In this document: one piece after another, positions 1,062-55,554 of the stretch
Position numbering within the stretch: position 1 is the first letter of the stretch
Layout of the letters: the number at the start of each line of letters is the position of its first letter
NCBI RefSeq assembly: GCF_945957525.1
Contig: NZ_CAMFLA010000010.1
Location: forward strand, 62,001-126,000
Origin: an uncultured Aquitalea sp.
GTDB lineage: Bacteria > Pseudomonadota > Gammaproteobacteria > Burkholderiales > Chromobacteriaceae
Direction: 5' to 3'
DNA: 64,000 nt
Program-made: the position numbers and the translations under genes
The notes under the pieces: model-generated
The model's input: only the letters and a program-made list of their open reading frames with translations
Told to the model about the DNA's origin: nothing
The model's database searches: none

Positions 1062-2216
1062 ATGCTTTCCAAATTGACCCAATGGTTCGGCGGCAAGCCG
1101 GACTCAGCCAGCGACAATACCGCCATGAACCTGACCGACGCTCAAGTGATCGAGGCCGTCTCCAGCCTGATCGACGACAACACCGGCAAGCCCTACACCG
1201 CCGCCAAGGCCGTGCGCAACATCAAGCAGAGCACCGACGCGCTCTCTCTGGACGTGGTGCTGGCCTACCCCGCTAACAGCCAGTTCGACAGCGTGCGCCA
1301 GCGCTTCATTGACGCGCTGACACCGTTGGCCGAAGGCCGCCGGGTGGAAGTGACGGTCAGCAGCCAGATCACCAGCCATGCCGCCCAGCGCGGCGTGCCG
1401 CTGCTTGACGGTGTGAAAAATATCATCGCCGTGGCGTCCGGCAAGGGCGGCGTGGGCAAATCCACCACCGCCGTCAACCTGGCGCTGGCTTTGGCCGCGG
1501 AAGGCGCGCGCGTGGGCATTCTGGACGCCGACATCTACGGGCCGTCGCAACCCTTGATGATGGGCCTGCAAGGCCAACGCCCGGAAACGACGGACGGCAA
1601 AAGCCTCAAGCCCATCGAAAATTACGGCATCCAAACCATGTCCATCGGCTATCTGGTGGACACCGACCAGGCCATGGTGTGGCGCGGCCCCATGGTTAGC
1701 CAGGCATTGCAGCAGCTGCTCAACGACACCCGCTGGGACAACCTCGACTATCTGGTCATCGACATGCCGCCAGGCACCGGCGACATCCAGCTGACGCTGT
1801 CGCAAAAAGTACCGGTTACCGGCGCGCTGATCGTCACCACGCCGCAGGACATCGCCCTTCTGGACGCGCGCAAGGGCGTCACCATGTTCAACAAGGTAGG
1901 CGTGCCGATTCTCGGCATGGTGGAAAACATGGCCATTCACGTCTGCAGCCAGTGCGGCCATGCCGAACACATCTTTGGTGAAGGCGGCGCGGCGCGCATG
2001 GCGGCGGATTTCGGTGTGGACGTGCTGGGCTCGCTGCCGCTGGACATGGGCATCCGCCTGGCCGTGGACGAAGGCAAGCCCACCGTGGCTGCCGATCCGG
2101 ATGGCGCCGTGGCCGCGCTCTACAAAGACATCGCCCGCAAGGTGGCGGTGAAAGTGGGCGAGAAGGCGCAGGATTTCTCCAGCAAATTCCCCAAGATCGT
2201 CATTCAGAACAACTGA
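1062..2216 (+). CDS. apbC: Mrp/ApbC P-loop ATPase, iron-sulfur cluster carrier
   Basis: A cytoplasmic 384-residue protein that binds and transfers Fe-S clusters to apoproteins. Residues about 22-100 form the small MIP18-like (DUF59) domain. The MRP/NBP35 ATPase follows, with the deviant Walker A motif SGKGGVGKST at about 126-135, LDADIYGPSQP near 154, VIDMPPGTGD near 232, and the cluster-binding CxxC at Cys295 and Cys298. Length matches the proteobacterial Mrp family. The ATG at 1062 is used; a second ATG at residue 22 sits at the start of the conserved domain and is a possible alternative, because the upstream ribosome site is weak. murI follows 10 bases downstream. Confidence 0.95.
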   Translation: MLSKLTQWFGGKPDSASDNTAMNLTDAQVIEAVSSLIDDNTGKPYTAAKAVRNIKQSTDALSLDVVLAYPANSQFDSVRQRFIDALTPLAEGRRVEVTVSSQITSHAAQRGVPLLDGVKNIIAVASGKGGVGKSTTAVNLALALAAEGARVGILDADIYGPSQPLMMGLQGQRPETTDGKSLKPIENYGIQTMSIGYLVDTDQAMVWRGPMVSQALQQLLNDTRWDNLDYLVIDMPPGTGDIQLTLSQKVPVTGALIVTTPQDIALLDARKGVTMFNKVGVPILGMVENMAIHVCSQCGHAEHIFGEGGAARMAADFGVDVLGSLPLDMGIRLAVDEGKPTVAADPDGAVAALYKDIARKVAVKVGEKAQDFSSKFPKIVIQNN

Positions 2217-2226
2217 TCGCCGCCGC

Positions 2227-3012
2227 ATGATCGCAATGCACGACTCGGGCCTGGGCGGGCTTTCCATCTGGCGCGCGGTGCGCGCCGCCCTGCCCCGCTG
2301 GCCCATTACCTATCTGGCCGACCAGGCCTACTGCCCCTACGGCCCGCGCAGTCGGCAGGAGATCATCGACCGCAGCCTGGCCATCGGCCATTACCTGATG
2401 AGCCAGGGGGCCACCATTCTGGTGGTGGCCTGCAATACCGCCACCACGGCGGCCATTACCGCCTTGCGGCGCGAGTTGCCCATCCCCATCGTTGGCGTGG
2501 AGCCGGCCATCAAACCGGCCGCCGCCGCCAGCCGCACGAGACGCATCGCCGTGCTGGCCACCCAGGCCACGCTGGCCAGCGAGCGGGTGCAAACCTTGCT
2601 GGACACCCACGCCAACGGCGTGGAAGTGTTGCGCCGGCCCGGCCACGGCTGGGTGGAACAAGTGGAAGCCGGCGAGCTGGACAGCCCCCTCACCCGCCAA
2701 GTGGTGGCCGAGGTGGTATCGCCGCTGCTGGCGCAAAACATCGACCACATCGCACTGGGCTGTACCCATTACCCCTTTCTCGCGCCTTTGATCCGCGAGC
2801 TCACCGGCGACGCCATTGCACTCTACGACCCGGCCGAGGCTATCGCTCGCCGTGTGGTGTCGCAGCTGAAACAGCATGCCAGTGACAGCCAGGCCGATCA
2901 TTGCTACCGTTTCATCACCACCGCCGACGATGCCGGGCCGATGGCGCGCATGCTGCCCATCCTGATCGGTCGACACGACGCGGTGGAATCCCATCCTCTG
3001 GAGACGCCATGA
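2227..3012 (+). CDS. murI: Glutamate racemase
   Basis: Converts L- to D-glutamate for peptidoglycan synthesis in the cytoplasm. The 261-residue protein has the family signature DSGLGGLS at its N-terminus. The two catalytic cysteines lie in VACNTATT (Cys69) and ALGCTHYPF (Cys179). Length is normal for MurI. A second ATG three codons in is equally possible. The stop codon overlaps the start of the following ribonuclease gene (ATGA), so murI, the RNase and the barstar gene are probably translationally coupled. Confidence 0.95.
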   Translation: MIAMHDSGLGGLSIWRAVRAALPRWPITYLADQAYCPYGPRSRQEIIDRSLAIGHYLMSQGATILVVACNTATTAAITALRRELPIPIVGVEPAIKPAAAASRTRRIAVLATQATLASERVQTLLDTHANGVEVLRRPGHGWVEQVEAGELDSPLTRQVVAEVVSPLLAQNIDHIALGCTHYPFLAPLIRELTGDAIALYDPAEAIARRVVSQLKQHASDSQADHCYRFITTADDAGPMARMLPILIGRHDAVESHPLETP

Positions 3013-3461
3013 CACGCCTGCCCGCCCTGATCGCCTCGCTGATGCTGTTTTGCCTGCCATTGACGCCGGCGTTTGCCGCCAGCTGTACAGACGTGGCGGT
3101 GGACGTGAACCGGCAAGCCGGCAACCGGCTGGACAACCAAGAACTGGCCAGCGTGATTGCCAGCCTGGGCAAAACCGGTCGCCTGCCGGACAAATTCGTC
3201 AGCAAACGCCAAGCCCAGGCCGCCGGCTGGCAGCCCGGCCGCAGCCTGTGGAGCGTGCCGGGCCTGCAGGGCAAGTCCATCGGCGGCGACCGCTTCGGCA
3301 ATTTCGAAAAACGTTTGCCGAAAGGGCAATGGCAAGAGGCGGACCTGAACTATAAAGGAGGCAAGCGCGGCGCTTACCGCATCGTCTTCTCCCGCGACGG
3401 CCAGCGCTTTGTCACCGTCGACCACTACAACCGCTTCATCGAGGTGCCGGCATGCCAATGA
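3009..3461 (+). CDS. Secreted barnase-type ribonuclease
   Basis: A 150-residue guanyl-preferring RNase of the N1/T1 (barnase) family. Residues 1-24 form a signal peptide ending in AFAA, so the mature enzyme should be exported. The mature part aligns motif by motif with barnase: LPDKFVSKRQAQAAGW, GKSIGGD, WQEADLNY (catalytic Glu110), RIVFSRDG (Arg124) and DHYNRF (His139). The start at 3009 is chosen because it begins the signal peptide and overlaps the murI stop. The barstar-type inhibitor gene overlaps its 3' end, as expected for a toxic nuclease with an intracellular antidote. A role in nutrient acquisition or in competition cannot be told apart from sequence. Confidence 0.92.
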   Translation: MTRLPALIASLMLFCLPLTPAFAASCTDVAVDVNRQAGNRLDNQELASVIASLGKTGRLPDKFVSKRQAQAAGWQPGRSLWSVPGLQGKSIGGDRFGNFEKRLPKGQWQEADLNYKGGKRGAYRIVFSRDGQRFVTVDHYNRFIEVPACQ

Positions 3462-3730
3462 CCACCTGCCACTTGCAGCACATCGCCACCATCGACCAGT
3501 TCTATGATGAACTGACCAAACAGCTCAAGCTGCCGTCGCACTTCGGCCGCAATCTGGACGCGCTGTACGATAGCCTCATCGCCGACGTCAAAGGCCCGTT
3601 CGAGCTGGTATGGCGCGAAACCGATGCCTCGCGCCAGTCGCTGGGCATTGATCTCTACTCCACCTTGCTGGAGATTCTGGAATCGGTCGCAGAAGAACGC
3701 GGCGACGTGATTCTGGACATCCATCACTAA
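3452..3730 (+). CDS. Barstar-family ribonuclease inhibitor
   Basis: A 92-residue cytoplasmic inhibitor of the barstar family, expected to block any RNase that stays inside the cell. The signature LPSHFGRNLDALYDSL keeps the two acidic residues (Asp36, Asp40) that match barstar Asp35 and Asp39, the residues that plug the barnase active site. It starts within the last codons of the RNase gene, with GAGGTG upstream of the ATG at 3452. The second ATG two codons later is also possible. Pairing with the adjacent nuclease is inferred from the overlap and the family match. Confidence 0.93.
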   Translation: MPMTTCHLQHIATIDQFYDELTKQLKLPSHFGRNLDALYDSLIADVKGPFELVWRETDASRQSLGIDLYSTLLEILESVAEERGDVILDIHH

Positions 3731-3847: not shown

Positions 3848-4999
3848 TCAAGCCAGCTTGCCGATGCGGGCCACCGCTTCGGCCAACCTGTCGATGCCGG
3901 TGGTGTAGGCCACCCTGACATAACGCTCCGGCTGATTAAAGCCAAAATCCGCACCCGGCGTTATCGCCACATGCCCCTCTTCCAGCAAGCGCCGGCAATA
4001 GGCAAAGCTGTCGTCGGTCACTGCGCTGACATCCGCGTACACATAAAACGCGCCTTCCGGCGCGGCAGGCAAGCGCCAGCCCAGTTGCGGCAAGGCCTGC
4101 AGCAGGTAATCACGCCGCCGGCCAAACTCCGCACGCCGCGTTTCCAGCTCGTCCAGCACCTCTGGACTGAAGGCCGCCAATGCTGCGCGCTGCGCCATGG
4201 ACGGCGGGCACAGAAACAGGTTTTGCGCCAGCCGCAGGGCCGGCTCCACCAACTCCGGCGGCACCACCAGCCAGCCCAACCGCCAGCCGGTCATCTGGAA
4301 ATATTTGGAAAAACTGTTGATGACGATGGCGTCCGGCGCCACCGACAACGCCGTAGGCGCGTCGCAACCATATGTCAGCCCGTGGTAGATCTCGTCCACG
4401 ATCAAGGCCCCGCCTCGGACGCGACACGCCTGCGCCAACGCCGCCAGTTCACCAGCGGACAACAAAGTGCCGGTGGGGTTGGCCGGGCTGGCCACCATGG
4501 CCGCCACGCTGCGCGGCGTCCATGCCTGCGCCACATCGCTGGCCAGCAACTGGAACCGTTGTTCCGACCCCACAGCCACGCCCAACGGCCGGCCACCAAG
4601 CAGGCTGACAAAATGGCGGTTGCACGGATACGTGGGGTCGGCCATCACGACCTCATCGCCCTCGTCCACCAACAGGCTCAACGCAATCTGCAAAGCGCCC
4701 GAAGCGCCGGGAGTGACAATCACCCGTTCCGGCGCCACCGCCACACCGTAACGTTGCTGGTAAAAACCGGAGATGGCCTGACGCAGCTCGGGCAAGCCTT
4801 GCGCCGCCGTATAAAAAGTATGGCCGTCGCTCAGCGCCTGGCGACCAGCATCCACGATGGCTTGCGGCGTGGGGAAGTCGGGCTCCCCCACTTCCAGATG
4901 AATGACGTCATGACCATCGGCCTGCAACTGGCGGGCACGCTCGAGGATGGCCATAACCTGAAAGGGCCCGATATCGCCCATGCGGCTGGAGAGTTTCAC
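3848..4999 (-). CDS. Class I/II PLP-dependent aminotransferase
   Basis: A 383-residue cytoplasmic fold-type I aminotransferase. The N-terminal pattern is SDIGPFQVM-like, with HLEVGEPDFPTP near residue 34, TPGASGAL near 97, ASPANPTGT near 170, VDEIYHGLTY near 201, and SFSKYFQMTGWRLGW containing the PLP-binding lysine (Lys232). The GTG at 4999 (read as MKLSSRMGD) is preferred; the ATG six codons later is the alternative. The longer open frame upstream to 5290 lacks protein-like character. It resembles AspC/YfdZ-type enzymes, but the amino-acid substrate cannot be set from sequence. It is convergent with the barstar gene and divergent from the symporter. Confidence 0.88.
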   Translation of the reverse strand: MKLSSRMGDIGPFQVMAILERARQLQADGHDVIHLEVGEPDFPTPQAIVDAGRQALSDGHTFYTAAQGLPELRQAISGFYQQRYGVAVAPERVIVTPGASGALQIALSLLVDEGDEVVMADPTYPCNRHFVSLLGGRPLGVAVGSEQRFQLLASDVAQAWTPRSVAAMVASPANPTGTLLSAGELAALAQACRVRGGALIVDEIYHGLTYGCDAPTALSVAPDAIVINSFSKYFQMTGWRLGWLVVPPELVEPALRLAQNLFLCPPSMAQRAALAAFSPEVLDELETRRAEFGRRRDYLLQALPQLGWRLPAAPEGAFYVYADVSAVTDDSFAYCRRLLEEGHVAITPGADFGFNQPERYVRVAYTTGIDRLAEAVARIGKLA

Positions 5000-6665: not shown

Positions 6666-6697
6666 GCGGCGCCGGCAGATTCTCTTCGGCCAACGTC

Positions 6698-6741: not shown

Positions 6742-6837
<96 letters not shown>

Positions 6838-8461: not shown

Positions 8462-8477
8462 ATTCCTTGCCAGACCC

Positions 8478-8546
8478 TTCTACAAAATTTAGCGCACCCA
8501 CGCAAAATAAGGCAGAAATAGGTAGCAAAGGTGGTATTTTGTAGAA
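8478..8546. repeat. TTCTACAAAA inverted pair at the right end of insertion 1
   Basis: TTCTACAAAA at 8478-8487 faces its inverted copy at 8537-8546, between the cargo gene stop and the second tRNA 3' copy. This mirrors the arrangement at the left end of the same insertion. Confidence 0.65.
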
Positions 8547-8590
8547 TGAAAATTGAGATAACAACCTGATTCTGTTGAATTTGCAACCAA

Positions 8591-8655
<65 letters not shown>

Positions 8656-8661
8656 ACATCT

Positions 8662-10036: not shown

Positions 10037-10122
10037 AACCTGGCTAGACGTGTATTAGAGAATACCGGACGTACATTCTTTGAGCACGATCTGGCTCTGA
10101 TCAGGTATCGACCAGACAACAA

Positions 10123-12898: not shown

Positions 12899-13503
12899 GC
12901 ATGCAGTCCCATCAGGATGACAAGCTGCCGGCCTCCGGCTGGCCCGGCGTGGCAGTCCGCGTGCTGACATCTGCGGATATCGCCTTGCTGCAGGGTTTCT
13001 TTGACGCCAACCCCGCATACTTTCTCACCGTATTCGGTCGACCGGCCCTACTGGACGAAGCCGCGCAAGAATTCCACGAACGGCCGCCTGCCAGTCTGCC
13101 CTTCGGCCAACATTGGCTGTTGGCTTATCTGGATCAGGGCGGCTCGTTGATTGGCGTGGCCTGCGTGCTGTCCGATCTGCCTGCCCCCGCCATCTGGCAC
13201 ATCAGCCTGTTCATGTTGGCCGAAGCGCTGCATGGCAGCGGCGCAGCGCAAGCCATGCATGCGGCGCTGGCGGACTGGGCCTGTGCGCGAGGCGCACAAT
13301 GGCTGCGACTGGGCGTGGTAGAGGGCAATGCCAGAGGCAAGCGCTTCTGGCTGCGACAGGGATATCTGCCGGCGCGCCAGCGACACGGCATAGAGATGGG
13401 CGGGCAGACTCATAGTCTGACTGTGATGTGCAAGCCGCTGACCGGCGGCGATATCGCCGGCTACTACGCGCTGGCGGCGCGAGACAGGCCCGACGGCGAC
13501 TGA
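12895..13503 (+). CDS. GNAT-family N-acetyltransferase
   Basis: A 202-residue protein with a GNAT fold pattern. The acetyl-CoA-binding region is around LHGSGAAQAMHAALADWACARGA (about 113-135), followed by WLRLGVVEGNARGKRFWLRQGY, the common C-terminal GNAT motif (Asn and the FWxRxGY element). The start overlaps the hydrolase stop. The target molecule cannot be inferred. It is convergent with the GGDEF-EAL gene just downstream. Confidence 0.82.
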   Translation: MSMQSHQDDKLPASGWPGVAVRVLTSADIALLQGFFDANPAYFLTVFGRPALLDEAAQEFHERPPASLPFGQHWLLAYLDQGGSLIGVACVLSDLPAPAIWHISLFMLAEALHGSGAAQAMHAALADWACARGAQWLRLGVVEGNARGKRFWLRQGYLPARQRHGIEMGGQTHSLTVMCKPLTGGDIAGYYALAARDRPDGD

Positions 13504-13511
13504 AACTGGCC

Positions 13512-15746
13512 TCAGTCCCGCACAGGCCACGCCGCCAGTAAGACGGCAAACTCACCGGCCGGCAAGGGGCGGGAATAGTGATAGCCCTGTACTGCGTCGC
13601 AGCCAGTAGCGCGCAGGCTGTCCAGCACGGCCTGATCTTCCACGCCCTCCGCAATGGTAAACAGGTTGAGCGTGTGGCCCATCTGCACAATGGCGGTGAC
13701 AATGGCGGCGGCGTCGCTGTCGCTGGCCATGTCGCGCACGAAAGATTGGTCGATCTTGAGGCTGTCCACGCGAAATTGCTTGAGGTAGGCAAGGCTGGAA
13801 TAGCCGGTGCCGAAATCGTCGATGGACAAGCGCAGGCCCAGCGCCTTGAGGCGGGCGATCAGCGCCGGCATGCGCTCCATATCATGCAACAGCGCCGATT
13901 CGGTCAGCTCGATTTCCAGCCAGCGACTCTCCAGCCCGCTGTCCGCCAGCGCACGCGCGATGGTGTCTTCGATATTGCCGCGCCTTAGTTGCACGGCGGA
14001 AAGATTCACCGCCACCATCAGCGGCGGCAGCCCGGCAGCCTGCCAGGCAGCTGCCTGACGGCAGGCTTCGGCCAACACCCACTCGCCCAGAGGCACGATG
14101 GCGCCGGTCTGCTCGGCCAGCGGAATGAAGGCGGCCGGCGACATCATCCCGCGCGATGGATGCCGCCAGCGCACCAGCGCCTCCGCGCCGATCAGCCGGC
14201 CGCTCGCCAGATCCACTTGCGGCTGGTAATGCAACACCAGCTGTCCGGCACCGATGGCTTCGCGCAGTTCGTGCGACAGGCTGAGATGCTCCAGACTGTT
14301 GCCGTCCATGTGCGGCTCGTAAAAACACCAGACGTTGCGTCCCATTGCCTTGGCGGCGTCGCGCGCCTTGCCGGCCCTGGGCGTCAGCGCATCCACGTGA
14401 TCGCCATCGCGAGGACAACGCGCCACCCCCAGCGAGCAGGACAGCGACAGCGGCCGGCCGTCCAGCAATATGGGCATGGCAACCAGTTCCTGCAGCTTTT
14501 GCAGCCGTGACTCCAGCGCCTGCCCATCTTCCAGCATCATGCCCAGCAGAAACTCGTCCCCTCCCTGCCGGCAGGCGATGTCCACCTCGGCACAGGCGGT
14601 AATGCGCTTGGCCACTTCCACCAGCAGGCTGTCGCCGGCGGCATGCCCCAGCGAATCGTTCAGCAGCTTAAAATGATCGATGTCCAGCGTCACCAGCGCC
14701 GCGTCGGCCCCAGTGGCAGCGGCCTGACGCAACAAGGCGGCAAAGCGTTCGCGAAACTGCTGTCGATTGGGCAGGCCGGTGAGCGCGTCGTGGGTGGAAA
14801 GAAAGCTGATGCGCTGCTCGGCATGCTTGCGCTCCGAAAGGTCGCTGAAAATGCCGATGTAGTGGCTGATCACGCCGTCGTCATTGCGCACGGCGGTGAT
14901 GTTCAACCACTCAGGAAATATTTCACCGTTGCGGCGCCGGTTCCATATTTCACCGCGCCAGTGACCCGCGCTGGCCAACTGGCGCCACATGTCTTCATAG
15001 AAGCCGGGCGCATGACGGCCCGAGGAAAAGATGCGCGGCTGACGCCCGATGACGTCTTCTTCGGCAAACCCCATCAGACGGCATAGCGCCTGATTCACAT
15101 AGAGGATGTCGGTGAGCGCATCGGTAATGAGGATGCCTTCTTCGCTGCCCTTGAACACCTGCTCGAACAATTTGAGCGAGGCTTCCGATTGCTTGCGCTC
15201 CAGTGCAATGCCCACCAGCGCGGCGCCGATCTCCAGCAGTTTGCGATGGAAGGGCGCAGGCTGGCGGTGCTCGAAACTGGACAAGGCAAAACTGCCCACC
15301 ACCTCGCCCTGGGCAGAAAACACCGGCATGGACCAGCAAGAGCAAAGATTGAAATCATGCGCGAGGTGGCGCAGGTCGCGCCAGCGCTCATCGGTGAAGG
15401 TGTTTTGCACGAATTGCGGCTGGCAACTGTAAACCGCGTTGCCGCAAGAGCCGGCATGCGGCCCCGGGCGCAAGCCGTTGAGGCGGGACGCGCTATCCGC
15501 CGGAATGCTGGGGGCGGCGTAAACATTGAGCGCCTGCCGGTTTTTATCCAACAGCATCACCGTGCCGACCGAATTGGGCAGCAGCTGTTCTTCCAGCTGA
15601 CAGAGGCGGCTGATTACGCCATGCGCCTCCCCGCCCAGGGCCATCGCCTCCAGAATAATCTGCTGCACCTGCAGGATATGCACCTGCTCTTCACTGCTTA
15701 GCTCGCTGTACTCGCTACTGGCGATGGCTGCGCTCACCTTGATCAT
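13512..15746 (-). CDS. GAF-PAS-GGDEF-EAL cyclic-di-GMP enzyme
   Basis: A 744-residue cytoplasmic signalling protein. Domains in order are GAF (about 30-182), PAS/PAC (about 190-310), GGDEF (about 315-475) and EAL (about 490-740). The diguanylate cyclase motif GGDEF is intact at 395-399. The phosphodiesterase motifs are also intact: EAL at 522-524, ELTES, DDFGTGYSS and KIDQSF. No RxxD inhibitory site precedes GGDEF. The segment after the GGDEF core (ALTPRAGKARDAAKAMGRN) departs from the usual ADxAMYxAK pattern. It may run both reactions or only the EAL one. The GAF domain has several Cys residues (Cys49, 101, 108, 135, 137), so redox or small-ligand sensing is possible. Confidence 0.93.
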   Translation of the reverse strand: MIKVSAAIASSEYSELSSEEQVHILQVQQIILEAMALGGEAHGVISRLCQLEEQLLPNSVGTVMLLDKNRQALNVYAAPSIPADSASRLNGLRPGPHAGSCGNAVYSCQPQFVQNTFTDERWRDLRHLAHDFNLCSCWSMPVFSAQGEVVGSFALSSFEHRQPAPFHRKLLEIGAALVGIALERKQSEASLKLFEQVFKGSEEGILITDALTDILYVNQALCRLMGFAEEDVIGRQPRIFSSGRHAPGFYEDMWRQLASAGHWRGEIWNRRRNGEIFPEWLNITAVRNDDGVISHYIGIFSDLSERKHAEQRISFLSTHDALTGLPNRQQFRERFAALLRQAAATGADAALVTLDIDHFKLLNDSLGHAAGDSLLVEVAKRITACAEVDIACRQGGDEFLLGMMLEDGQALESRLQKLQELVAMPILLDGRPLSLSCSLGVARCPRDGDHVDALTPRAGKARDAAKAMGRNVWCFYEPHMDGNSLEHLSLSHELREAIGAGQLVLHYQPQVDLASGRLIGAEALVRWRHPSRGMMSPAAFIPLAEQTGAIVPLGEWVLAEACRQAAAWQAAGLPPLMVAVNLSAVQLRRGNIEDTIARALADSGLESRWLEIELTESALLHDMERMPALIARLKALGLRLSIDDFGTGYSSLAYLKQFRVDSLKIDQSFVRDMASDSDAAAIVTAIVQMGHTLNLFTIAEGVEDQAVLDSLRATGCDAVQGYHYSRPLPAGEFAVLLAAWPVRD

Positions 15747-16240
15747 CCCGCTTCGGCCAACCTTGTTGTCCGGTTGGTCCGGTTGTCTGATTTGTTTTTA
15801 TACGACGCTTATCGTCCTTTAAACGACATCTTACCGCAGCAGCCCGTTTGGAAAAGTGATTTCTGCACCGGCCTTGTGGTTTTTTACAACGAATGCAATG
15901 CATGTTGCACTGCAAAAATCAAGCTATCGCGGCAAAATTTCACCCCTTCGTAGCAACTTTCCAACAAGGCATTTTTCACAAGTAAAATGACAAAGACAAG
16001 CATTAAATACCCATCAAATTGGAAAAGCGAGCATTCTGCATTTACCAAATAAGTAGTTTTATTACTACACAAAAACCATGCTCAATGTAGTAACTTTACT
16101 ACAAAAACATTTGTTGACCCGTTAACATCTGCTCACAAAAATGTCCGTGCCATGACAGCCATTTGACAACGCTGTAACACAGCAACAGAAATGGCTGCCA
16201 AGTAGCAAAACAACATAACGAGACAGTTCGGAGACAACAG
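15747..16240. other. AT-rich regulatory region upstream of the porin
   Basis: These 494 bases are distinctly AT-rich from about 15900 on. They contain the two TAGTAA-type palindromes described separately. A possible promoter is TTGACC near 16114 with AAAAAT 17 bases later. Position 15752 carries a copy of the 11-mer GTTGGCCGAAG. No gene or RNA is evident. Confidence 0.5.
16053..16103. promoter_or_regulatory. Two palindromic operator candidates upstream of the porin
   Basis: Site 1 (16053-16068) is GTAGTTTTATTACTAC, an imperfect dyad. Site 2 (16086-16103) is TGTAGTAACTTTACTACA, a perfect dyad with a two-base centre. The half-site TAGTAA is shared, and the centres lie about 34 bases apart, near three helical turns. 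Both are just upstream of a candidate -35 (near 16114). The binding protein is unknown. Confidence 0.6.
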
Positions 16241-19197: not shown

Positions 19198-20424
19198 TCA
19201 GGCATCAAAGCGACGCAACACCAACGTGGCGTTGGTACCGCCGAAAGCAAAAGAATTACTGATGGCCGCGCACAGATCCGGCGCATCCACACCTTCGCGC
19301 ACATGATTGACCGCGCACTCGTCATCCAGCTGCTCGCTATTGGCGGTGGGCGGTACGCGGCGCTGATGCAGAGCCAGTGTGGTGAGCAAGGCCTCCAGGG
19401 CGCCGGTGGCGCCAAGAAGATGGCCATGCACCGACTTGGTGGAGCTGACGCGCAAGCCCGGAGTACCTTCACCCCAGATCGCGTTCAATGCCGCGCACTC
19501 GACGCCGTCGCCCACTTTGGTGGCCGTGCCGTGAGCGTTGCAGTAGCCCACTTCTTCCGCCCCGATGCCAGCGTCGCGCAGCGCGGCGCGCATGGCGCGC
19601 TCCTGCCCGACGGCATCCGGCTTGGTAATGTGAGTGGCATCACAACGGTTGGCGTAGCCGTCCAGCGTGGCGTAAATACGCGCGCCGCGCGCCACGGCGG
19701 CATCCAGCCGTTCCAGTACGAAAAAGGCAGCGCCTTCGGCCAACACCAGCCCGGAACGACGCACGTCGTACGGACGGCAAGAGGCTTCCGGACGCTCCGC
19801 ATCCGGCGTAGCCAGCACTTGCATGGATTGCCAAGCTCCGATGATACCGGGCATCAGCATGGCTTCCGTCCCGCCGGCGATGGCGCACTCCACCTCGCCG
19901 GAGCGGATGGCGCGCATGGCTTCGCCCAACGCAATGGCGGAGGACGCGCAAGCAACGGAATAGGTCATGCCGGGGCCGGTAATGCCCAGGCGCATGCTGA
20001 TGTGGCCGGCCGGCGCATTGGCCATGCTGGCGATCACGGTAAGCGGCGAGATGCGGCTCTTATCCGCATAAAAACTCTGGAAACCCTTGTCCAGGCTGCC
20101 TGCGCCACCCATGCCGCAACCCACGTAAACGCCAACAGCGCTCTTGTCTTCCGGCAGGGTGATGCCTGCATCGTCCATCGCCATCAGGCTGGAGGCCACC
20201 GCCATCTGACTGACCTTGTCCAGACCGCTCAACTGCATGCGGTTGAACCACGGCGCCGGATCAAACGACACTTGCGCGCCGACGGTCGGCTTGGAACCGG
20301 CCAGCGATTCATCCAGCAAGGCGATGCCCGACTCGCCGGCCATGGCGCGCTCGAAAGCCTGGGCAGGATCGTTGCCCAGCGGCGAAATCAGCCCGAGGCC
20401 GGTAATGGCGACGCGATGACTCAT
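19198..20424 (-). CDS. Beta-ketoacyl-ACP synthase (FabF-like), paired with a dedicated ACP
   Basis: A 408-residue condensing enzyme with the thiolase fold. The catalytic triad is present: Cys159 (SVACASSA), His298 (NAHGTAT) and His333 (SVHGHLLGAT). The C-terminal FAFGGTNA glycine-rich loop is intact. Length and motifs place it with FabF/KS II enzymes. It overlaps the upstream acyl carrier protein gene by four bases, and no other fatty-acid genes are near. This two-gene layout suggests a side pathway, such as a special acyl chain for a lipid or secondary metabolite, and not the housekeeping FabF. The product is unknown. Confidence 0.88.
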   Translation of the reverse strand: MSHRVAITGLGLISPLGNDPAQAFERAMAGESGIALLDESLAGSKPTVGAQVSFDPAPWFNRMQLSGLDKVSQMAVASSLMAMDDAGITLPEDKSAVGVYVGCGMGGAGSLDKGFQSFYADKSRISPLTVIASMANAPAGHISMRLGITGPGMTYSVACASSAIALGEAMRAIRSGEVECAIAGGTEAMLMPGIIGAWQSMQVLATPDAERPEASCRPYDVRRSGLVLAEGAAFFVLERLDAAVARGARIYATLDGYANRCDATHITKPDAVGQERAMRAALRDAGIGAEEVGYCNAHGTATKVGDGVECAALNAIWGEGTPGLRVSSTKSVHGHLLGATGALEALLTTLALHQRRVPPTANSEQLDDECAVNHVREGVDAPDLCAAISNSFAFGGTNATLVLRRFDA

Positions 20425-35079: not shown

Positions 35080-35607
35080 ATGCAGCATGCCCAGCACACG
35101 CCCCGCCCGTGGTACAAGGAGCCTTGGCCGTGGATCCTGATCAGCCTCCCCCTGACGGCGGTGATCGTCGGCATCTACTTCCTCAATATCGCCATCAAGA
35201 CTGATGACGGCTTGGTGGTGGACGATTACTACAACAAAGGCAAGGCCATCAATACCGAGCTGCGACGCGACAAGGCCGCAGCCGATCTGGGCATCACGGC
35301 ACAGGTGATGTTCGCCCCCGATGGCCGCACCGTCACCATCAACACCACCTCGACCAAGCCGCTGCCCGATACGCTCACCCTGCGCATCGTGCATCCGGCG
35401 CAGGACGATTTCGACGCTATTACCGAGGTGCACAAGTCCGCCGGCAATCAGTACACCGGCAGTTTGCCGAAGGGGCTGGCCAAGGCCAACCACTGGTATG
35501 TGCAACTGGAGGACAAAGCCAATCAGTGGCGCGTGCAAAGCGAGTGGAAGCCGGGGGATGGCCCGGTGGCGATGCTGGGCCGCCCCAAGCTGGAGCCGGT
35601 GAATTGA
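35080..35607 (+). CDS. fixH: FixH/CcoH family assembly protein
   Basis: A 175-residue protein with one helix near residues 16-37 and a periplasmic domain. The motif DDGLVVDDYYNKGKAIN (about 42-58) is the family signature. FixH proteins help assemble or supply copper to cbb3 oxidase. It is tightly placed behind ccoG and overlaps the start of the next lipoprotein gene. No CcoI copper ATPase or CcoS gene is found here, so those must lie elsewhere. Confidence 0.9.
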   Translation: MQHAQHTPRPWYKEPWPWILISLPLTAVIVGIYFLNIAIKTDDGLVVDDYYNKGKAINTELRRDKAAADLGITAQVMFAPDGRTVTINTTSTKPLPDTLTLRIVHPAQDDFDAITEVHKSAGNQYTGSLPKGLAKANHWYVQLEDKANQWRVQSEWKPGDGPVAMLGRPKLEPVN

Positions 35608-37469: not shown

Positions 37470-37580
37470 GATGCTCTCCTTGCCCGGACGGGTAGCCGCC
37501 TGCGCGCGCAATGGGCGCGACAAGCGGCCCGGGTGCGGGCAGTGTCAATTCAATACTGGATGAAAACGAATGGAATGACG

Positions 37581-37598
37581 TTGGCCGAAGGCGGCCAA
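37581..37598. promoter_or_regulatory. Hairpin in the tnaC-tnaA spacer
   Basis: TTGGCCG/CGGCCAA with a four-base loop forms a compact hairpin between the leader ORF and tnaA. It contains one copy of the 11-mer GTTGGCCGAAG. It lacks a T-run, so if the system works like E. coli, termination would be Rho-dependent. Confidence 0.45.
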
Positions 37599-38443: not shown

Positions 38444-39297
38444 TACCAATCTCCCGATGCGCCGCCGCCGCCAAAACCGCCGCCGCCGCCCGACCAGCCG
38501 CTGCCGCCGGAGCCGCCACCCGACCCGCCGCCGCTCCAGCCGCCGCCTCCGCCGCCCCAACTAATGCCGCCGGTACTGGCGATCAACTGGCTAAGCAGCA
38601 CCGACAACACGCCGGCCGCCAACGAAAAAGCCACCATCGCGCCCAGATAAAGCGTAACGGCCACCACCCCGGCACCGAGAATGAAGCTGCCGACAGCGCG
38701 GCCAAACAGCCCGTTGAGCACACCGCCGCCCACCGTGGCGGCAATAACGCAAACCACGATCATGAAGCCGTAGTCCGGTTCATGGTTGGCCGAAGCCGAC
38801 GGCGCCGGCAGCGCTTCGCCCTTGATCAGCCCCTCTATCTGAATCACCGCCGCCTGAATGCCGCCCAGCCGATCGTTCTGCTTCAGCCGTGGCTTGAGCG
38901 TGTCTTGCAAGATGCGCTTGGCGTACGCGTCCGGAATCGCCCCCTCCAGCCCGCGCCCCACCAACAGCTGCGTTTTGTGCTCATCGGCCACGATCAGCAG
39001 CAACACGCCGTCGTCCACGCCTTTGCGCCCCAGCTTCCAGCTGTCCATCACCCGCGCGCCGTAATCAAACGGCGTTTCAGGCGCGATGGCGGGCACAATC
39101 AGCACCGCCACCTGGCTGCCTTTTTCACGGCTGAAATCCAGCAGCTGTCGCTCCAGCGCGGCGCGGTCGCTGTCCTGTAGAAATCCGGCCAGATCCACAA
39201 CCGGCGAGCTGGCAGGCGGAATCGCCGTTTCCGCCCGCGCCAACAGGCAGCAAAAAGCCAGGCAGGCCAGCAGCATTACCCGCAGCAAGACTGTCAT
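38443..39297 (-). CDS. YgcG-type TPM-domain membrane protein with glycine-rich tail
   Basis: A 284-residue protein. Residues 1-22 are a signal peptide (ending ARA). The periplasmic TPM domain spans about 33-160 (VVDLAGFLQDSDRAALERQL, VAVLIVP, WKLGRKGVDDGVLLLIV). Two or three helices lie at about 178-245. The last 40 residues are a Gly/Ser/Trp-rich tail with repeated GGGSGG and GWSGGGGG units. This layout is standard for YgcG proteins next to LemA. The function may concern membrane protein quality or photosystem-like repair in relatives; in bacteria it is unknown. Confidence 0.9.
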   Translation of the reverse strand: MTVLLRVMLLACLAFCCLLARAETAIPPASSPVVDLAGFLQDSDRAALERQLLDFSREKGSQVAVLIVPAIAPETPFDYGARVMDSWKLGRKGVDDGVLLLIVADEHKTQLLVGRGLEGAIPDAYAKRILQDTLKPRLKQNDRLGGIQAAVIQIEGLIKGEALPAPSASANHEPDYGFMIVVCVIAATVGGGVLNGLFGRAVGSFILGAGVVAVTLYLGAMVAFSLAAGVLSVLLSQLIASTGGISWGGGGGGWSGGGSGGGSGGSGWSGGGGGFGGGGASGDW

Positions 39298-41729: not shown

Positions 41730-41836
41730 CCAAGGCGGCGTTAAGACTTGAACGGCCCGCTCATGATAAGCTGTGCGCATTTTTCGCCACCGCCGAACGA
41801 CTGTTTGCCAGACGCTTCGGCCAACCTAGCACCACG

Positions 41837-44716: not shown

Positions 44717-45522
44717 ATGGCAAAGCGCTCACCCTCTGCGCCGACGATTTCGCCCAATCGCCCGCCATCAGCGACGGCATTCTCGCCCTGCTGCAGGCCG
44801 GGCGCTTGAGCGCCACCTGCGCCATGAGTCAATCGCCGCACTGGTCGGCCCTGGCCGACAGCCTCAGGCAGGCAGCCGTCCGCGCCGACATCGGCTTGCA
44901 CATCAATCTCACCCATGTCTTTCCCGCCAGCCGCGATAGCATCAAACCGCTGTCGCACTGGCTGCTGATGAGCCAGCTGCGACAGCTGGACGTGGCCGCG
45001 CTGACCGACGCCATGCTGCAACAGATAGACCGCTTTGCCGATGTCTACGGCGCGCTGCCGGACTTCCTCGACGGCCACCAGCATGTGCATGCCCTGCCGC
45101 AAGTGCGAACCGCCCTGTTTGCGGCCATCGGCCAACGTTGGCCGAAGACGCTGCGCCCCTGGTTGCGTGCGCCCGACAAACTGGGTCATGCCGGCGACAG
45201 CGCGCTCAAAGGGATGATCCTGAAAACTGTCTGCCACGGCTTCGCCAGACAGGCCACGGCGCAAGGCTTTGCCGTCCCTGCCTGGTTTGGCGGTTTGTAT
45301 TCATTGACGGCGGAAGCGGATTTCCCCGGCCTGATGGCAAGCTGGCTGGCGGCCTGCCGCGGGCACAGCGTGATGATGTGTCACCCCGGCCTGCTGGCGG
45401 AAGACGCGGCAGACCCCATCGGCCCCGCGCGGGCGCAAGAATACGCCTACCTTGCCAGCGACAGGTTTGCCGAAGACCTCGCCCGCCATGGCGTATCGCT
45501 CAGCCGCTTCCTGCCGGCCTGA
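44713..45522 (+). CDS. YdjC/ChbG-family carbohydrate deacetylase (NaxD-like)
   Basis: A 269-residue metal-dependent deacetylase of the YdjC family. LCADDFAQSPAIS (Asp11, Asp12), GLHINLTH (His63) and LDGHQHVHALP (His122, His124, His126) provide the metal and catalytic residues. Family members remove acetyl groups from chitobiose-type sugars (ChbG) or from undecaprenyl-phosphate-GalNAc (Francisella NaxD). The overlap with GtrA and the GT2/GT39 genes favours the NaxD-type role. The start at 44713 overlaps the GtrA stop. Confidence 0.87.
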   Translation: MNGKALTLCADDFAQSPAISDGILALLQAGRLSATCAMSQSPHWSALADSLRQAAVRADIGLHINLTHVFPASRDSIKPLSHWLLMSQLRQLDVAALTDAMLQQIDRFADVYGALPDFLDGHQHVHALPQVRTALFAAIGQRWPKTLRPWLRAPDKLGHAGDSALKGMILKTVCHGFARQATAQGFAVPAWFGGLYSLTAEADFPGLMASWLAACRGHSVMMCHPGLLAEDAADPIGPARAQEYAYLASDRFAEDLARHGVSLSRFLPA

Positions 45523-49693: not shown

Positions 49694-52171
49694 TCAGGCC
49701 CCATCCGGCAGTTTTCGCGTCAGTCGCAAGCCGTTGCCGATCACCATCAAACTGGCGCCCACATCGGCAAACACCGCCATCCACAAAGTCGCCTCTCCGC
49801 TCAATGCCAGCCCAAAAAACACCAGCTTGATCAGCAAGGCCACCGCAATATTTACCTTCAGCACGCCCGCCGTGCGCCGGGCATGTTTGAGCAAGGCCGG
49901 CAACTTCTCCAGCCTGTCGTCCATCAACGCCACGCCGGCGGTTTCCAGCGCGGTATCCGAACCGGCCGCGCCCATGGCCACGCCCAGTTCCGCCTGCGCC
50001 AGCGCAGGCGCGTCGTTGACGCCGTCGCCCACCATAGCCACCTTGCCCTCGCCCTGCAGCTGGTGGATGCGCGCCAGCTTGTCTTCCGGCAACAGGCCGC
50101 CGTGCGCCTCGCTGACGCCGGTCAGTCTCGCCACGCGCGCCACTACCGCCGGATTGTCGCCGCTAAGCATGACGGTGCGCACGCCCATGGCCTGCAGACG
50201 CGCCACCGTGTCTTGCGCTTCCGGGCGCACGCCGTCGGCGACAGCCAACACCCCGAGAGCGCGAGCGCCCTCCAGCAGCACCAGCGCGCCCTCGCCCTGT
50301 GCGTCAAGGCTGTCCAGCGCCAAGCGCAAGGCATCGCTCATCGCGTCCTGCTCTTCGGCCAACCTAGCGCTACCCAAGGCCAGCGCGCGCCCAGCCACAC
50401 TGCCGAAGACGCCGCGCCCCGCGCGTTCGTTCACCTCGTTGGCCGCCTGCGGCGTCATGCCGCGTTTGGCCGCTTCGTCCAGCACCGCCCGCGCCAGCGG
50501 GTGAGTGGAATGCGCATCCAGCGCGGCGGCCAGCGCGACAATCTCGCCCTCGTCCGCGGTCAGGGCCAATACCCGGGTTACTTGAGGTTGGCCGAAAGTG
50601 AGGGTGCCGGTCTTGTCAAAGCAGACCGTGTCGATGCGGGCAGCCACCTCCAACGGTGCCCCCCCCTTCACCAGCATGCCGGCGCGGGCTGCGGCGGCCA
50701 ATGCGCTTACCACACTGACCGGCGTGGCTATCACCAGCGCACAGGGGCAAGCGATCACCAACATCACCAGCGCGTTGTAAACGGCTTCGCGCAGCGGCAT
50801 CAGACCCAGCAACGGCAACAGCACGGCGCAGGCCGCGGCCAGCCCCACCACCACCGGCGTGTACCAGCGGGCAAAGCGGTCGATGAAACGTTGCGTGGGT
50901 GCTTTGCTGGCCTGCGCACTGCGCACGGTGTCGATAATGCGCGCCAGCACACTGCCCGAGGCCGCCGCCGTAACGCGCACTTCCACCAGCCCGCCGCCAT
51001 TGATGCTGCCGGCAAACACGCTGTCGCCCACCCGCTTGTCCACCGGCAGACTCTCGCCGGTGATGGGCGCTTCATTGAAACTGCTGTCGCCGGCGACGAT
51101 CGTTCCGTCCAGCGGCACGCGCTCGCCCGGGCGCACGCGCGCCACACTACCAATGCTGGCCCCGGCTACCGGCGTTTCGAGCCAGCCGCCATCGGCTTGT
51201 CGCAGCCAAGCGGTTTCCGGCGCCAGCGCCATCAGCTGCCGCACCGCTTCGCCGGCGCGGGCCAAAGACATAGCCTCCAGCTTTTCCGCAATGGCGAACA
51301 AGAACAGCACCATGGCGGCTTCCGGCCATTGGCCGATGGCCACCGCGCCGATCACCGCTACGCTCATCAGAAAGTGAATGTTCATGGCGCCGGAGCGCAG
51401 GGCAATCCAGCCCTTGCGCAAGGTGGGCAGGCCGGCAATCAGGATGGAGGACAGCGCCAGCGCGGCCACAACCACGCCCTTGTCCGCGCCGCTGAACCAG
51501 GCCCAGCCCTCGGCCCCGGCAGCCAGCAAGCCGGATGCCGTCAGCTTGAGCATGTCATTGCCAGCCGGCACCGGTGCGGCCGGAGCAACCCGATCACCCT
51601 CCAAGGACACGGCCTGCATACCCACCCGGCCAATGGCTGTCTGGATGGCCTCGGCATCCGCGCCGTCGTGACGCACGATCAGCACGCGCTCGATGAAGTT
51701 GAAGTCCAGCCCGGCCACGCCATCCACCTTGGCCAAGGCCTTTTCGATCAGCGCCGCCTCAGTGGGGCAATCCATGGCATCGATGCGGAAGCGGTAGCGT
51801 TGCGCCCCCGCAGCGCCTTCGGCCAACTGGCGTTGCAGCGTGGCTGCGGATTCACAGGCGCAACCCTCGGCCTGCGCCTGATCATGCGCGTGATGGGCAT
51901 GGTCATGGTCGTGGCTGTGATCATGGGCATGGTCGTGCCGATGCGCTTGGCTTGCATCGTCACGACCATGCTCCGACTCGCCGCCGCAGCCGCTTACGGG
52001 CGAGTGCGCGGGTTCGCCCTGGCTTCGGCAAACCTCGCCTGTATTTTTCAAGTTTTTATTGCTACATTTATCATCAAGTATTGAATGTAGTTTCGCATCG
52101 CCGCAGCAGGCGCCGGAACCGGTCTGGTGCGGCGGATTGTGGCGATGTGTAGCGTTCTGATGCTGGGACAT
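49694..52171 (-). CDS. zntA: P1B-type heavy-metal ATPase (Zn/Cd/Pb exporter, ZntA/CadA-like)
   Basis: An 825-residue inner-membrane metal pump. A long N-terminal tail carries a His/Asp-rich stretch (about 77-96, ten His) and several Cys pairs. An HMA domain with MDCPTEA (Cys135) follows, the form seen in Zn/Cd/Pb pumps. The core has TGES (371-374), the CPC metal site at 475-477 and the phosphorylated Asp519 in DKTGTLT, then GDGVNDAPAL. The gene is divergent from a CadR-type MerR regulator, and the shared operator spans its promoter. Cd or Pb is favoured by the regulator; zinc is also likely. Confidence 0.95.
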   Translation of the reverse strand: MSQHQNATHRHNPPHQTGSGACCGDAKLHSILDDKCSNKNLKNTGEVCRSQGEPAHSPVSGCGGESEHGRDDASQAHRHDHAHDHSHDHDHAHHAHDQAQAEGCACESAATLQRQLAEGAAGAQRYRFRIDAMDCPTEAALIEKALAKVDGVAGLDFNFIERVLIVRHDGADAEAIQTAIGRVGMQAVSLEGDRVAPAAPVPAGNDMLKLTASGLLAAGAEGWAWFSGADKGVVVAALALSSILIAGLPTLRKGWIALRSGAMNIHFLMSVAVIGAVAIGQWPEAAMVLFLFAIAEKLEAMSLARAGEAVRQLMALAPETAWLRQADGGWLETPVAGASIGSVARVRPGERVPLDGTIVAGDSSFNEAPITGESLPVDKRVGDSVFAGSINGGGLVEVRVTAAASGSVLARIIDTVRSAQASKAPTQRFIDRFARWYTPVVVGLAAACAVLLPLLGLMPLREAVYNALVMLVIACPCALVIATPVSVVSALAAAARAGMLVKGGAPLEVAARIDTVCFDKTGTLTFGQPQVTRVLALTADEGEIVALAAALDAHSTHPLARAVLDEAAKRGMTPQAANEVNERAGRGVFGSVAGRALALGSARLAEEQDAMSDALRLALDSLDAQGEGALVLLEGARALGVLAVADGVRPEAQDTVARLQAMGVRTVMLSGDNPAVVARVARLTGVSEAHGGLLPEDKLARIHQLQGEGKVAMVGDGVNDAPALAQAELGVAMGAAGSDTALETAGVALMDDRLEKLPALLKHARRTAGVLKVNIAVALLIKLVFFGLALSGEATLWMAVFADVGASLMVIGNGLRLTRKLPDGA

Positions 52172-54127: not shown

Positions 54128-55018
54128 ATGGACGCCAAAGCCCTGCGTTACTTTGTGGAAGTGGTCAAACAGCAAAGCTTCACCCGCGCTGCCGAAGCCT
54201 TGTTCGTCACCCAGCCCACCATCAGCAAAATGGTCAAACAGCTGGAAGAAGAACTGGGCATGCCCTTGGTGCTGCGCGAAGGGCGCGGCTTCCGGCTGAC
54301 CGATGCCGGCAAGGTCACCTATGAACGCGGACTGGATGTGCTGTCCGCCATGAGCCAGCTCAAGCACGAGCTGGCCGACTTGGCCGGTCTGGGCAAGGGC
54401 GAACTGGTGGTGGGCTTGCCGCCCATGGTGGGCGTGGCTTTCTTTGCGCCGGTGGTGGGCGCTTTCCGCCAACGCTATCCGGGCATTGAGCTCAAGATGG
54501 TGGAAGACGGCGCGCTTGCCATTGAAAACAGCATTCGCGGCGGCGAGCTAGAAATCGGCGTGGCGGTATTGCCGGTGGACAACAGCATCTTCCAGCAATT
54601 TGCCGTGGTGCGGGACCCGCTGTGCCTGGTGGCGCCGGCCGGCTCTCGCTGGCAAGGCAAGTCCGCCATTACCCTGCCCGATATCGCTGACGAATCGTTT
54701 GTGCTGTATCCGGAAGACTTCACCCTCTCCAGTCGCATTCACCACGCCTTCCGCGAAATGGGCAAGCCGCTGAACGTGGTTGGCCGAAGCGCGCACTGGG
54801 ACTTCATCGTAGAACTGGTCACCGCCCGGCTGGGCGTCACCTTGCTGCCGCGCAGCGTGGTGGGCAGGCTGGACCGGGAACTCTATGATGTGATTCCGGT
54901 ATCCAACCCCTGGTTGATCTGGCACCTTGCCCTGATCTGGCAAAAGGACGGTTATTTATCCCATGCCGCCCGCGCCTGGCTGGCCGTTACTCGCGACGTG
55001 CTTGGCGGGCTCGAATAA
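54128..55018 (+). CDS. cidR: LysR-family regulator, CidR-like
   Basis: A 296-residue transcription factor. The N-terminal winged helix (YFVEVVKQQSFTRAAEALFVTQPTISKMVKQLEEELG, about 8-44) is followed by the effector-binding domain. Divergence from lrgAB/cidAB identifies it as CidR-like; in other bacteria CidR responds to acetate or related overflow metabolism. The start follows the palindrome by four bases, suggesting autoregulation. Confidence 0.9.
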   Translation: MDAKALRYFVEVVKQQSFTRAAEALFVTQPTISKMVKQLEEELGMPLVLREGRGFRLTDAGKVTYERGLDVLSAMSQLKHELADLAGLGKGELVVGLPPMVGVAFFAPVVGAFRQRYPGIELKMVEDGALAIENSIRGGELEIGVAVLPVDNSIFQQFAVVRDPLCLVAPAGSRWQGKSAITLPDIADESFVLYPEDFTLSSRIHHAFREMGKPLNVVGRSAHWDFIVELVTARLGVTLLPRSVVGRLDRELYDVIPVSNPWLIWHLALIWQKDGYLSHAARAWLAVTRDVLGGLE

Positions 55019-55030
55019 AGGACGCTTTTC

Positions 55031-55477
55031 ATGCTGAGAAAACTGCTCGTACTTGCCGCACTGCTCGGTCTGGCCGCTTGCGCCGGCCTGGGTCTGAAAA
55101 AACCCGACATCAGTCTGGCCGACATCAAACCCGTCAGCGCCAGTTTGCTAGAGCAAAGCTTTGACGTGACGCTGCGCCTGCAAAATCCCAACAACCTGCC
55201 GCTGTCGGCGGATGGCCTGCAATTCGACCTGCTGCTGGCCGGCAACAAACTGGCTACCGGCGTCAGCAACCAGCCCATCAAAGTGGCGGCGCTCGCCGAC
55301 ACCACCTTTACCGTGAGGGTGCACACCTCGCTGACCGGCTGGCTCAAGCAGGTGGGCAAACTGATGGACGGCAACACCCGCCAGCTGGACTACCAGATCA
55401 ATGGCCGGCTGGAAGGTCTCAACGGCTTTGGCAGTCTGCCCTTCACCAGCAAGGGCGAATGGAAGCTGCCGCAATGA
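55031..55477 (+). CDS. LEA14-like (WHy domain) lipoprotein
   Basis: A 148-residue predicted lipoprotein with lipobox LAAC (Cys17). The mature part is a LEA type 2/WHy beta-sandwich: DISLADIKPVSASLLEQSFDVTLRLQNPNNLPLSADGLQFDLLLAG, then TSLTGWLKQVGK and a final strand. Such proteins are widespread in Gram-negative bacteria, and some are linked to envelope stress. It lies 12 bases after the LysR gene on the same strand, possibly co-transcribed. Confidence 0.85.
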   Translation: MLRKLLVLAALLGLAACAGLGLKKPDISLADIKPVSASLLEQSFDVTLRLQNPNNLPLSADGLQFDLLLAGNKLATGVSNQPIKVAALADTTFTVRVHTSLTGWLKQVGKLMDGNTRQLDYQINGRLEGLNGFGSLPFTSKGEWKLPQ

Positions 55478-55520
55478 CAACCCGTCTCCTCATCACCTGC
55501 TGAACCCTGGCCCTGAAAGC

Positions 55521-55554
55521 GCCTTCGGCCAACCTTGTCAGGTTGGCCGAAGGC
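55521..55554. repeat. Perfect 15-bp inverted repeat built from two GTTGGCCGAAG motifs
   Basis: GCCTTCGGCCAACCT and AGGTTGGCCGAAGGC flank a TGTC loop between two convergent genes. It should form a strong hairpin and may terminate transcription in both directions, although no T-run follows. Each arm holds one exact copy of the dispersed 11-mer. The layout recalls Neisseria terminators formed by paired uptake sequences. Confidence 0.85.

What the first reader, a model, noticed from the sequence alone, without database searches (positions are those of the whole stretch)
1326..55551. Strong excess of the 11-mer GTTGGCCGAAG: a candidate uptake-type dispersed signal
By eye I find 18 exact copies on both strands (core positions 1326, 3878, 6685, 13102, 13216, 14067, 15752, 19735, 24918, 37581, 38786, 41816, 45138, 50354, 51818, 54780, 55524, 55543), plus several near matches. 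A composition-based estimate expects well under one. Six are intergenic, three form inverted or self-complementary arrangements, and coding copies use different reading frames. The core genes at 25-36 kb and 56-64 kb lack it. This behaves like a DNA uptake sequence, but it differs from the known Neisseria DUS dialects that end in CTGAA. I know of no description for this group.
Basis: partly seen in the sequence, partly recalled or inferred. Interest (0 to 1): 0.78.

Follow-up and report, generated by a model that had tools for sequence, protein, structure and literature searches.

The report
New DNA-uptake-type signal in Chromobacteriaceae
This environmental bacterium and many of its relatives carry hundreds to thousands of copies of a short DNA word that looks like a 'take up my own DNA' tag, in a bacterial family where a survey had reported no obvious tag of this kind.

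Summary
All 18 exact copies of GTTGGCCGAAG are in the window (0.07 expected). The whole genome has 1069, split 520/549 between strands; the same word read backwards occurs 5 times. Codon usage does not explain it: coding copies of GTTGGCCGAA number 119 against 7.8 after synonymous shuffling, and 63 kb of non-coding DNA holds 35.

The organism is a Chromobacteriaceae member, sister to the other Aquitalea. In that family 23 of 61 genomes carry one of three dialects, GTTGGCCG-AA (8), -AG (2) or -CA (13); the other 38 stay near background. Among 291 genomes outside the family none exceeds 47 copies of the AA form.

This is the pattern of a DNA uptake sequence, but without the CTG core of the described Neisseria dialects. 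A 2013 survey saw no obvious DUS in strain 2002 (P. ferrooxidans); I count 1104 copies of the 10-mer there.

A ComP-like minor pilin is a plausible receptor. It lacks ComP's second disulfide, and motif-free relatives have it too. Uptake itself is untested.

The parts
1325..1335 (+). GTTGGCCGAAG copy, inside a Mrp/NUBPL-type P-loop NTPase gene (1062-2216 +)
3877..3887 (-). GTTGGCCGAAG copy, inside an aminotransferase gene (3848-5290 -)
6684..6694 (-). GTTGGCCGAAG copy, intergenic, 48 bases before a tRNA-Ser gene (6742-6831 +)
13101..13111 (-). GTTGGCCGAAG copy, in a called gene without Pfam match (13048-13530 -)
13215..13225 (+). GTTGGCCGAAG copy, antisense in the same called gene
14066..14076 (-). 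GTTGGCCGAAG copy, inside a GGDEF/EAL-type gene (13512-15746 -)
15751..15761 (-). GTTGGCCGAAG copy, intergenic
19734..19744 (-). GTTGGCCGAAG copy, coding; the aligned 10 bases in Aquitalea magnusonii and A. palustris read GCTGGCAGAA
24917..24927 (-). GTTGGCCGAAG copy, inside an alpha/beta-hydrolase gene (24230-25162 -)
37580..37590 (+). GTTGGCCGAAG copy, intergenic
38785..38795 (+). GTTGGCCGAAG copy, antisense in a TPM-domain gene (38443-39297 -)
41815..41825 (-). GTTGGCCGAAG copy, intergenic
45137..45147 (+). GTTGGCCGAAG copy in a YdjC-like gene, with an inverted one-mismatch copy at 45126-45136
50353..50363 (-). GTTGGCCGAAG copy, inside a metal P-type ATPase gene (49694-52171 -)
51817..51827 (-). 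GTTGGCCGAAG copy, same gene
54779..54789 (+). GTTGGCCGAAG copy, inside a LysR-type regulator gene (54128-55018 +)
55523..55533 (-). GTTGGCCGAAG copy, left arm of an inverted pair between convergent called genes
55542..55552 (+). GTTGGCCGAAG copy, right arm of the inverted pair
55521..55554 (.). hairpin formed by the two inverted copies (15-bp stem, 4-base loop, -31 kcal/mol)
29174..29184 (+). secondary form GTTTGCCGAAG (8 in the window: 15059, 24400, 29174, 35462, 43778, 45465, 52023, 60598)
35462..35472 (+). secondary form GTTTGCCGAAG
60598..60608 (+). secondary form GTTTGCCGAAG, within the sucB gene (60293-61552 -)

Best explanation
GTTGGCCGAA(G), consensus about A-N-GTT[G/T]GCCGAA-G, is the DNA uptake sequence of this bacterium and one dialect of an uptake-sequence family (core GTTGGCCG, dialects -AA, -AG, -CA) of the Chromobacteriaceae. 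Proposed mechanism: a surface DNA receptor of the type IV pilus machinery, most likely the ComP-like minor pilin encoded with other minor pilins beside polA, binds this word in free DNA. DNA of kin is therefore taken up and recombined preferentially, and over generations the word accumulates by mutation wherever protein or spacer tolerates it. Shown here: the excess, strand balance, placement, independence from codon use, one dialect per genome, single-base differences at some homologous sites, and presence of generic uptake genes and a ComP-like pilin. Inferred: that the word works in uptake, how it accumulates, and which protein reads it.
For: Genome-wide excess of 1069 against 5 for the reversed word, 520/549 by strand. 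The highest-ranking over-represented 9- to 13-mers in 464 kb are this word, its parts and its extensions. Excess over synonymous shuffles, 119 against 7.8, and 35 copies in 63 kb of non-coding DNA. Six close pairs, all inverted with 16-19 bases between starts, against 2.1 expected in any orientation; three folded, all hairpins. One dialect per genome in 23 of 61 family genomes; on a PepN tree CA and AG are one clade each. Leu-Ala-Glu is coded TTGGCCGAA in 72 of 187 cases here, 2 of 71 in motif-free Aquitalea, and TTGGCCGAG in 37 of 72 in the AG dialect. Four of 10 gap-free homologous Aquitalea sites differ by one base, GCTGGCCGAA. ComEC domain in 59 of 61 genomes, DprA and two HHH_3 proteins, one in a 153-aa frame as expected of ComEA, in this genome. 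ComP-like pilin whose best three solved relatives are the ComP entries. Its loop signature N[TVA]Dx[GD] is in 22 of 23 motif-bearing and 0 of 34 motif-free genomes' best hits.
Against: No uptake or binding experiment exists. ComEC, DprA and HHH_3 are weak evidence: they also ring in 10, 11 and 11 of 14 control genomes, E. coli among them. ComP-like pilin and ComEC are also present in motif-free Aquitalea and Chromobacterium, so the machinery does not predict the motif. Two Vogesella drafts with over 2000 copies gave no ComEC match (G073, G074). The pilin lacks the four-cysteine DD region, and its net charge is near neutral in motif-bearing genomes (-4 to +6 in 23; this genome +6). The P. denitrificans pilin lacks the loop signature and falls beside non-ComP pilins. 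Profile scores of the Paludibacterium-group and several Vogesella hits (88-136 bits) overlap that of an Aquitalea pilin of another class (128 bits, G003:C139), so their orthology is not secured. Weak tilt to the locally G-rich strand, 88 against 65.
Confidence: 0.85

Rival explanations
1. A cytoplasmic chromosome-maintenance signal (Chi-like, KOPS-like, or a binding site of a nucleoid or segregation protein) dispersed over the chromosome.
For: Dispersed, short, genome-wide; weak tilt to the locally G-rich strand, 88 against 65.
Against: Nearly equal on both strands genome-wide, 520/549, and 46/48 on contig C1 with 49 orientation changes in 93 steps; polar signals are strongly skewed (recalled). 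Inverted pairs. Dialect replacement between genera and background counts in sister species would be odd for an essential cell function.
Confidence: 0.06
2. Codon-pair or amino-acid context artefact (Leu-Ala-Glu and Ser-Ala-Asn written with preferred codons).
For: 95 of 118 coding copies are in those two contexts.
Against: Synonymous shuffling within genes leaves 7.8 of 119; 35 copies in 63 kb of non-coding DNA; Aquitalea, Chromobacterium and Paludibacterium samples write Leu-Ala-Glu mostly as CTGGCCGAG/A.
Confidence: 0.01
3. Remains of a short mobile or REP-type repeat, or binding site of a transcription regulator or methylase.
For: Many copies; some form hairpins in spacers.
Against: Conservation fades within about 3 bases on either side of 153 copies; 118 of 153 copies are in genes and 95 of those in two codon registers; 4 of 10 gap-free homologous Aquitalea sites differ by one base (sites with alignment gaps were dropped by that script, so insertion was not tested fully); not a palindrome.
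Confidence: 0.03
4. It is an uptake signal, but the receptor is another surface protein, not the ComP-like pilin.
For: The ComP-like pilin occurs in motif-free genomes, lacks the DD region and is not generally basic. Other pilins were not tested for association with dialect.
Against: Of the two pilin classes compared with solved structures, only this one has ComP as best match (against 56). Its loop, by alignment the beta1-beta2 loop that contacts DNA in N. subflava ComP (PMC4906244, passages), varies with motif presence.
Confidence: 0.35

Closest known systems
DNA uptake sequence (DUS) of Neisseriaceae
   Same: Short non-palindromic word, many hundred to about three thousand copies per genome on both strands, some as inverted pairs forming hairpins (for Neisseria recalled), dialects that differ by one or two bases; NCBI order Neisseriales; a ComP-type pilin is present.
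   Different: No CTG on either strand; shared core GTTGGCCG. Found in Chromobacteriaceae, for five of whose genomes Frye et al. 2013 reported no obvious DUS and, for C. violaceum, no ComP by BLAST (PMC3630211, passages and one section).
Uptake signal sequence (USS) of Pasteurellaceae
   Same: Dispersed, family-specific uptake word with variants.
   Different: Inner core GCGG (PMC12616744, passages); unrelated sequence and lineage.
ComP, type IV minor pilin and DUS receptor
   Same: Pfam ComP_DUS above its cut-off; best three solved matches are ComP of N. meningitidis (two entries) and N. subflava.
   Different: No second disulfide: usually two cysteines instead of the four of the DD region (PMC4906244).

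Membership tests
Neisseria-type DUS | CTG core on one strand | tested here: not met
   Neither GTTGGCCGAA(G) nor its complement contains CTG, nor do the -AG and -CA words; definition from PMC12061091 and PMC12616744 (passages).
Neisseria-type DUS | among the most over-represented words of the genome, on both strands | tested here: met
   (464-kb sample)
Neisseria-type DUS | dialects in related genera | tested here: met
Uptake sequence (functional class) | DNA with the word is taken up preferentially | not testable with these tools
   needs an uptake assay
Uptake sequence (functional class) | type IV pilus and competence genes present | tested here: met
   pilin genes, ComEC domain, DprA and HHH_3; PilQ and PilT not tested; these families also ring in most control genomes
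ComP | class III pilin of the ComP_DUS family, closest to ComP among solved pilins | tested here: met
   a second pilin of the same genome matches geopilin and PilE-type entries, and no ComP at E up to 0.01
ComP | DD region with two disulfides (four cysteines, one pair pinning the C-terminal loop to beta1) | tested here: not met
   2 or 3 cysteines in the 8 AA and 2 AG pilins, 2 in 11 of 13 CA pilins; in the other two CA pilins the extra cysteines are at residues 7, 9 or 9, 43
ComP | binds its own uptake sequence better than other DNA | not testable with these tools
   needs EMSA or SPR
Chi/KOPS-type polar signal | strong skew to the leading strand | tested here: not met
   520/549; 88/65 against the locally G-rich strand; origin and terminus not mapped

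The most novel reading that the evidence does not exclude
Sequence-guided DNA uptake is older than the Neisseriaceae: a ComP-class pilin already guided it in the common ancestor with Chromobacteriaceae, the recognised core was later replaced outright (GTTGGCCG in one family, CTG in the other), and several Chromobacteriaceae lineages (Chromobacterium, crown Aquitalea, Craterilacuibacter, most Paludibacterium) then lost it, leaving a natural series of dialect change and loss.
Probability: 0.35. Interest if true: 0.87.

Novelty: new variant of a known kind. Interest (0 to 1): 0.76.

Why it matters
[quoted passage not shown] A third family, with three dialects and motif-free sister species beside them, would make old questions testable: how uptake specificity starts, changes core and is lost, and which residues of the receptor read the DNA. 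It would also amend a published negative: strain 2002 was listed among genomes without an obvious DUS.

Tried and rejected
Rejected: codon-usage artefact, mobile repeat, polar chromosome signal. More even spacing than random: not supported (variance/mean 0.87 in 10-kb bins of C1; 30% of random sets as low). Depletion in foreign-looking genes: no GTT[G/T]GCCGAA in 14 genes of GC3 under 0.60, but that is only 7 kb, too little to claim.

Led nowhere: Pfam ComP_DUS alone as a receptor marker; it matches 39 of 41 genomes, motif-free ones included. The highest-scoring such pilin of this genome (contig C14) proved closer to geopilin and PilE-type entries. ComEC presence does not separate motif-bearing from motif-free genomes. 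A first PepN tree used wrong frames for some rows and was discarded; the second leaves out P. denitrificans (its pepN is broken in the record) and two MAGs. The pilin tree holds 46 of 61 genomes and three other pilins; 4 rows were not found by its pattern. Those 4 and 11 more (fetched) were read later, so the best hit of each of 61 genomes was read; the four Craterilacuibacter-clade hits, judged other pilins by score and sequence, were left out of the 57 counted. The loop signature was chosen after seeing the sequences and is confounded with phylogeny; a looser N[TVA]D is in 3 of 38 motif-free hits.

Literature: ten searches of open-licence PMC papers found no description of this word. The 10-mer search found 29 papers, 20 listed, none about uptake by title; 9 were not seen. 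Frye et al. list over-represented 10-mers of the 'negative' genomes in Table S1D, which I could not read; this word may be there, unrecognised. Seen: passages of PMC3630211 (and its section 7 whole), PMC12061091, PMC4906244, PMC10715097, PMC12616744; a term search in PMC3868556 gave nothing; the rest are search listings only.
Full report
Observation. The window holds 18 exact GTTGGCCGAAG against 0.07 expected; the largest gap between copies is 12.7 kb, the next 6.4 kb. With one mismatch allowed there are 37 against 1.96. In the 4.05-Mb genome there are 520 + 549 copies and only 1 + 4 of the reversed word. In 464 kb of it (the window and 20 stretches of 20 kb) the highest-ranking over-represented words of 9 to 13 bases are this word, its parts and its extensions. 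GTTGGCCGAA occurs 153 times against 6.8 in a fifth-order Markov model, AGGTTGGCCGAAG 37 against 0.2, and a second form, GTTTGCCGAA, 68 against 5.8. Flanks prefer A at -2 and G at +10, then fade. The second form shows the same preferences, so it looks like the same signal with G or T at position 4.

It is not codon use. Of 153 10-mer copies 35 are non-coding, 23% in 14% of the DNA. Coding copies are mostly Leu-Ala-Glu (sense) or Ser-Ala-Asn (antisense). Shuffling synonymous codons within each of 448 genes leaves a mean of 7.8 of 119 copies. The tripeptides themselves exceed composition (187 against 95 and 49 against 26; Leu-Ala-Glu also does so in motif-free relatives), and one-step neighbours such as GCTGGCCGAA are fewer than shuffled (9 against 20.5). 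Leu-Ala-Glu is written TTGGCCGAA in 72 of 187 cases here and 2 of 71 in motif-free Aquitalea; the AG-dialect sample writes TTGGCCGAG in 37 of 72. Gene calls come from my own script (open frames and third-position GC), not from an annotation.

Layout. Strands are balanced overall and on contig C1 (46/48). All six close pairs in 464 kb are inverted with 16-19 bases between starts, against 2.1 expected in any orientation; five are in non-coding DNA by my calls. Three were folded and form strong hairpins, two of them running into T-rich sequence. This resembles the terminator pairs known for Neisseria DUS (recalled).

Who carries it. PepN is 84% identical to Aquitalea magnusonii and A. palustris; on a PepN tree the window's genome is sister to the other Aquitalea. 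Counts over all 61 genomes of the family that the tool holds: GTTGGCCGAA in 8 (183 to 2168 copies), GTTGGCCGAG in 2 (1590, 1940), GTTGGCCGCA in 13 (1871 to 2895); the other 38 have 10 to 62 AA copies. No genome is high for two words, though G020 (579 AA, 165 AG) and G065 (183 AA, 84% complete) are intermediate, and P. purpuratum and a sister (G024, G063) have mildly raised AG counts (92, 85). By named records at the pepN locus (about 22 kb each), AA is in Gulbenkiania mobilis, Pseudogulbenkiania ferrooxidans 2002, Crenobacter oryzisoli, strain JH1-16 and Paludibacterium denitrificans; AG in Crenobacter luteus; CA in four Vogesella and one MAG. It is not seen in the Chromobacterium, Aquitalea, Craterilacuibacter, TC5R-5 and three other Paludibacterium records beyond 0-2 copies. 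Of 300 genomes drawn from the tool's order, 291 from 50 other families have at most 47 copies of the AA form (G344, control 16). The other two dialects were not searched there.

History. On the PepN tree CA and AG are one clade each; AA sits in four places and motif-free genomes in five groups as drawn. Well-supported branches force fewer changes, at least 2 for each label. An ancestral AA word with dialect changes and losses is the simplest reading; independent gains are not excluded. At 10 motif sites with a gap-free Aquitalea homologue, 4 read GCTGGCCGAA and 6 differ by 2 to 7 bases. Of 5 sites with a homologue in other AA genera, 2 carry the intact word. Sites with alignment gaps were dropped.

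Receptor. A ComP-like pilin lies downstream of other pilin-type genes beside polA (contig C9). Its best solved matches are ComP of N. meningitidis and N. subflava (E 4e-10 to 5e-10; profile of seven relatives, 4e-20 for the best). Another pilin of the genome matches geopilin and PilE-type entries and no ComP at E up to 0.01. Profile hits of this class were found in every genus of the family, but those of the Craterilacuibacter group look like other pilins, and those of the Paludibacterium group and several Vogesella are weak. The loop that by alignment lies between beta strands 1 and 2, a DNA-contact region of ComP (PMC4906244), has N[TVA]Dx[GD] in 22 of 23 motif-bearing and 0 of 34 motif-free genomes. 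This was found after looking, is confounded with phylogeny, and rests on no structure. Against a plain ComP assignment: no DD region, near-neutral charge, and presence in motif-free genomes.

Verdict. A real uptake-type signal family of Chromobacteriaceae, not described in print as far as ten searches of open PMC text show. It very probably guides DNA uptake; function and reader remain to be tested.

Noticed in passing
G000 genome; window 15059, 24400, 29174, 35462, 43778, 45465, 52023, 60598: A second form GTTTGCCGAA is enriched in this genome (147 per Mb in the sample) but not in the sampled relatives (6-16 per Mb): possibly a dialect change in progress.
   Followed up: partly
window 7085-10368: Three called genes with low third-position GC (0.54-0.59), among them MauJ-like and ParA-like proteins, without an exact copy of the word: looks like an acquired stretch.
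   Followed up: no
L115 10001-12623 (Paludibacterium denitrificans): pepN is interrupted by stops or frame changes in this record; the genome is flagged 80% complete, so perhaps sequencing error.
   Followed up: no
G061:C1:465051-465458: Best ComP-like hit of a motif-free Paludibacterium-group genome has an internal TGA stop, suggesting decay.
   Followed up: no
G073, G074: Two Vogesella drafts with over 2000 copies of the CA word gave no ComEC match: recent loss of competence or assembly gaps.
   Followed up: no
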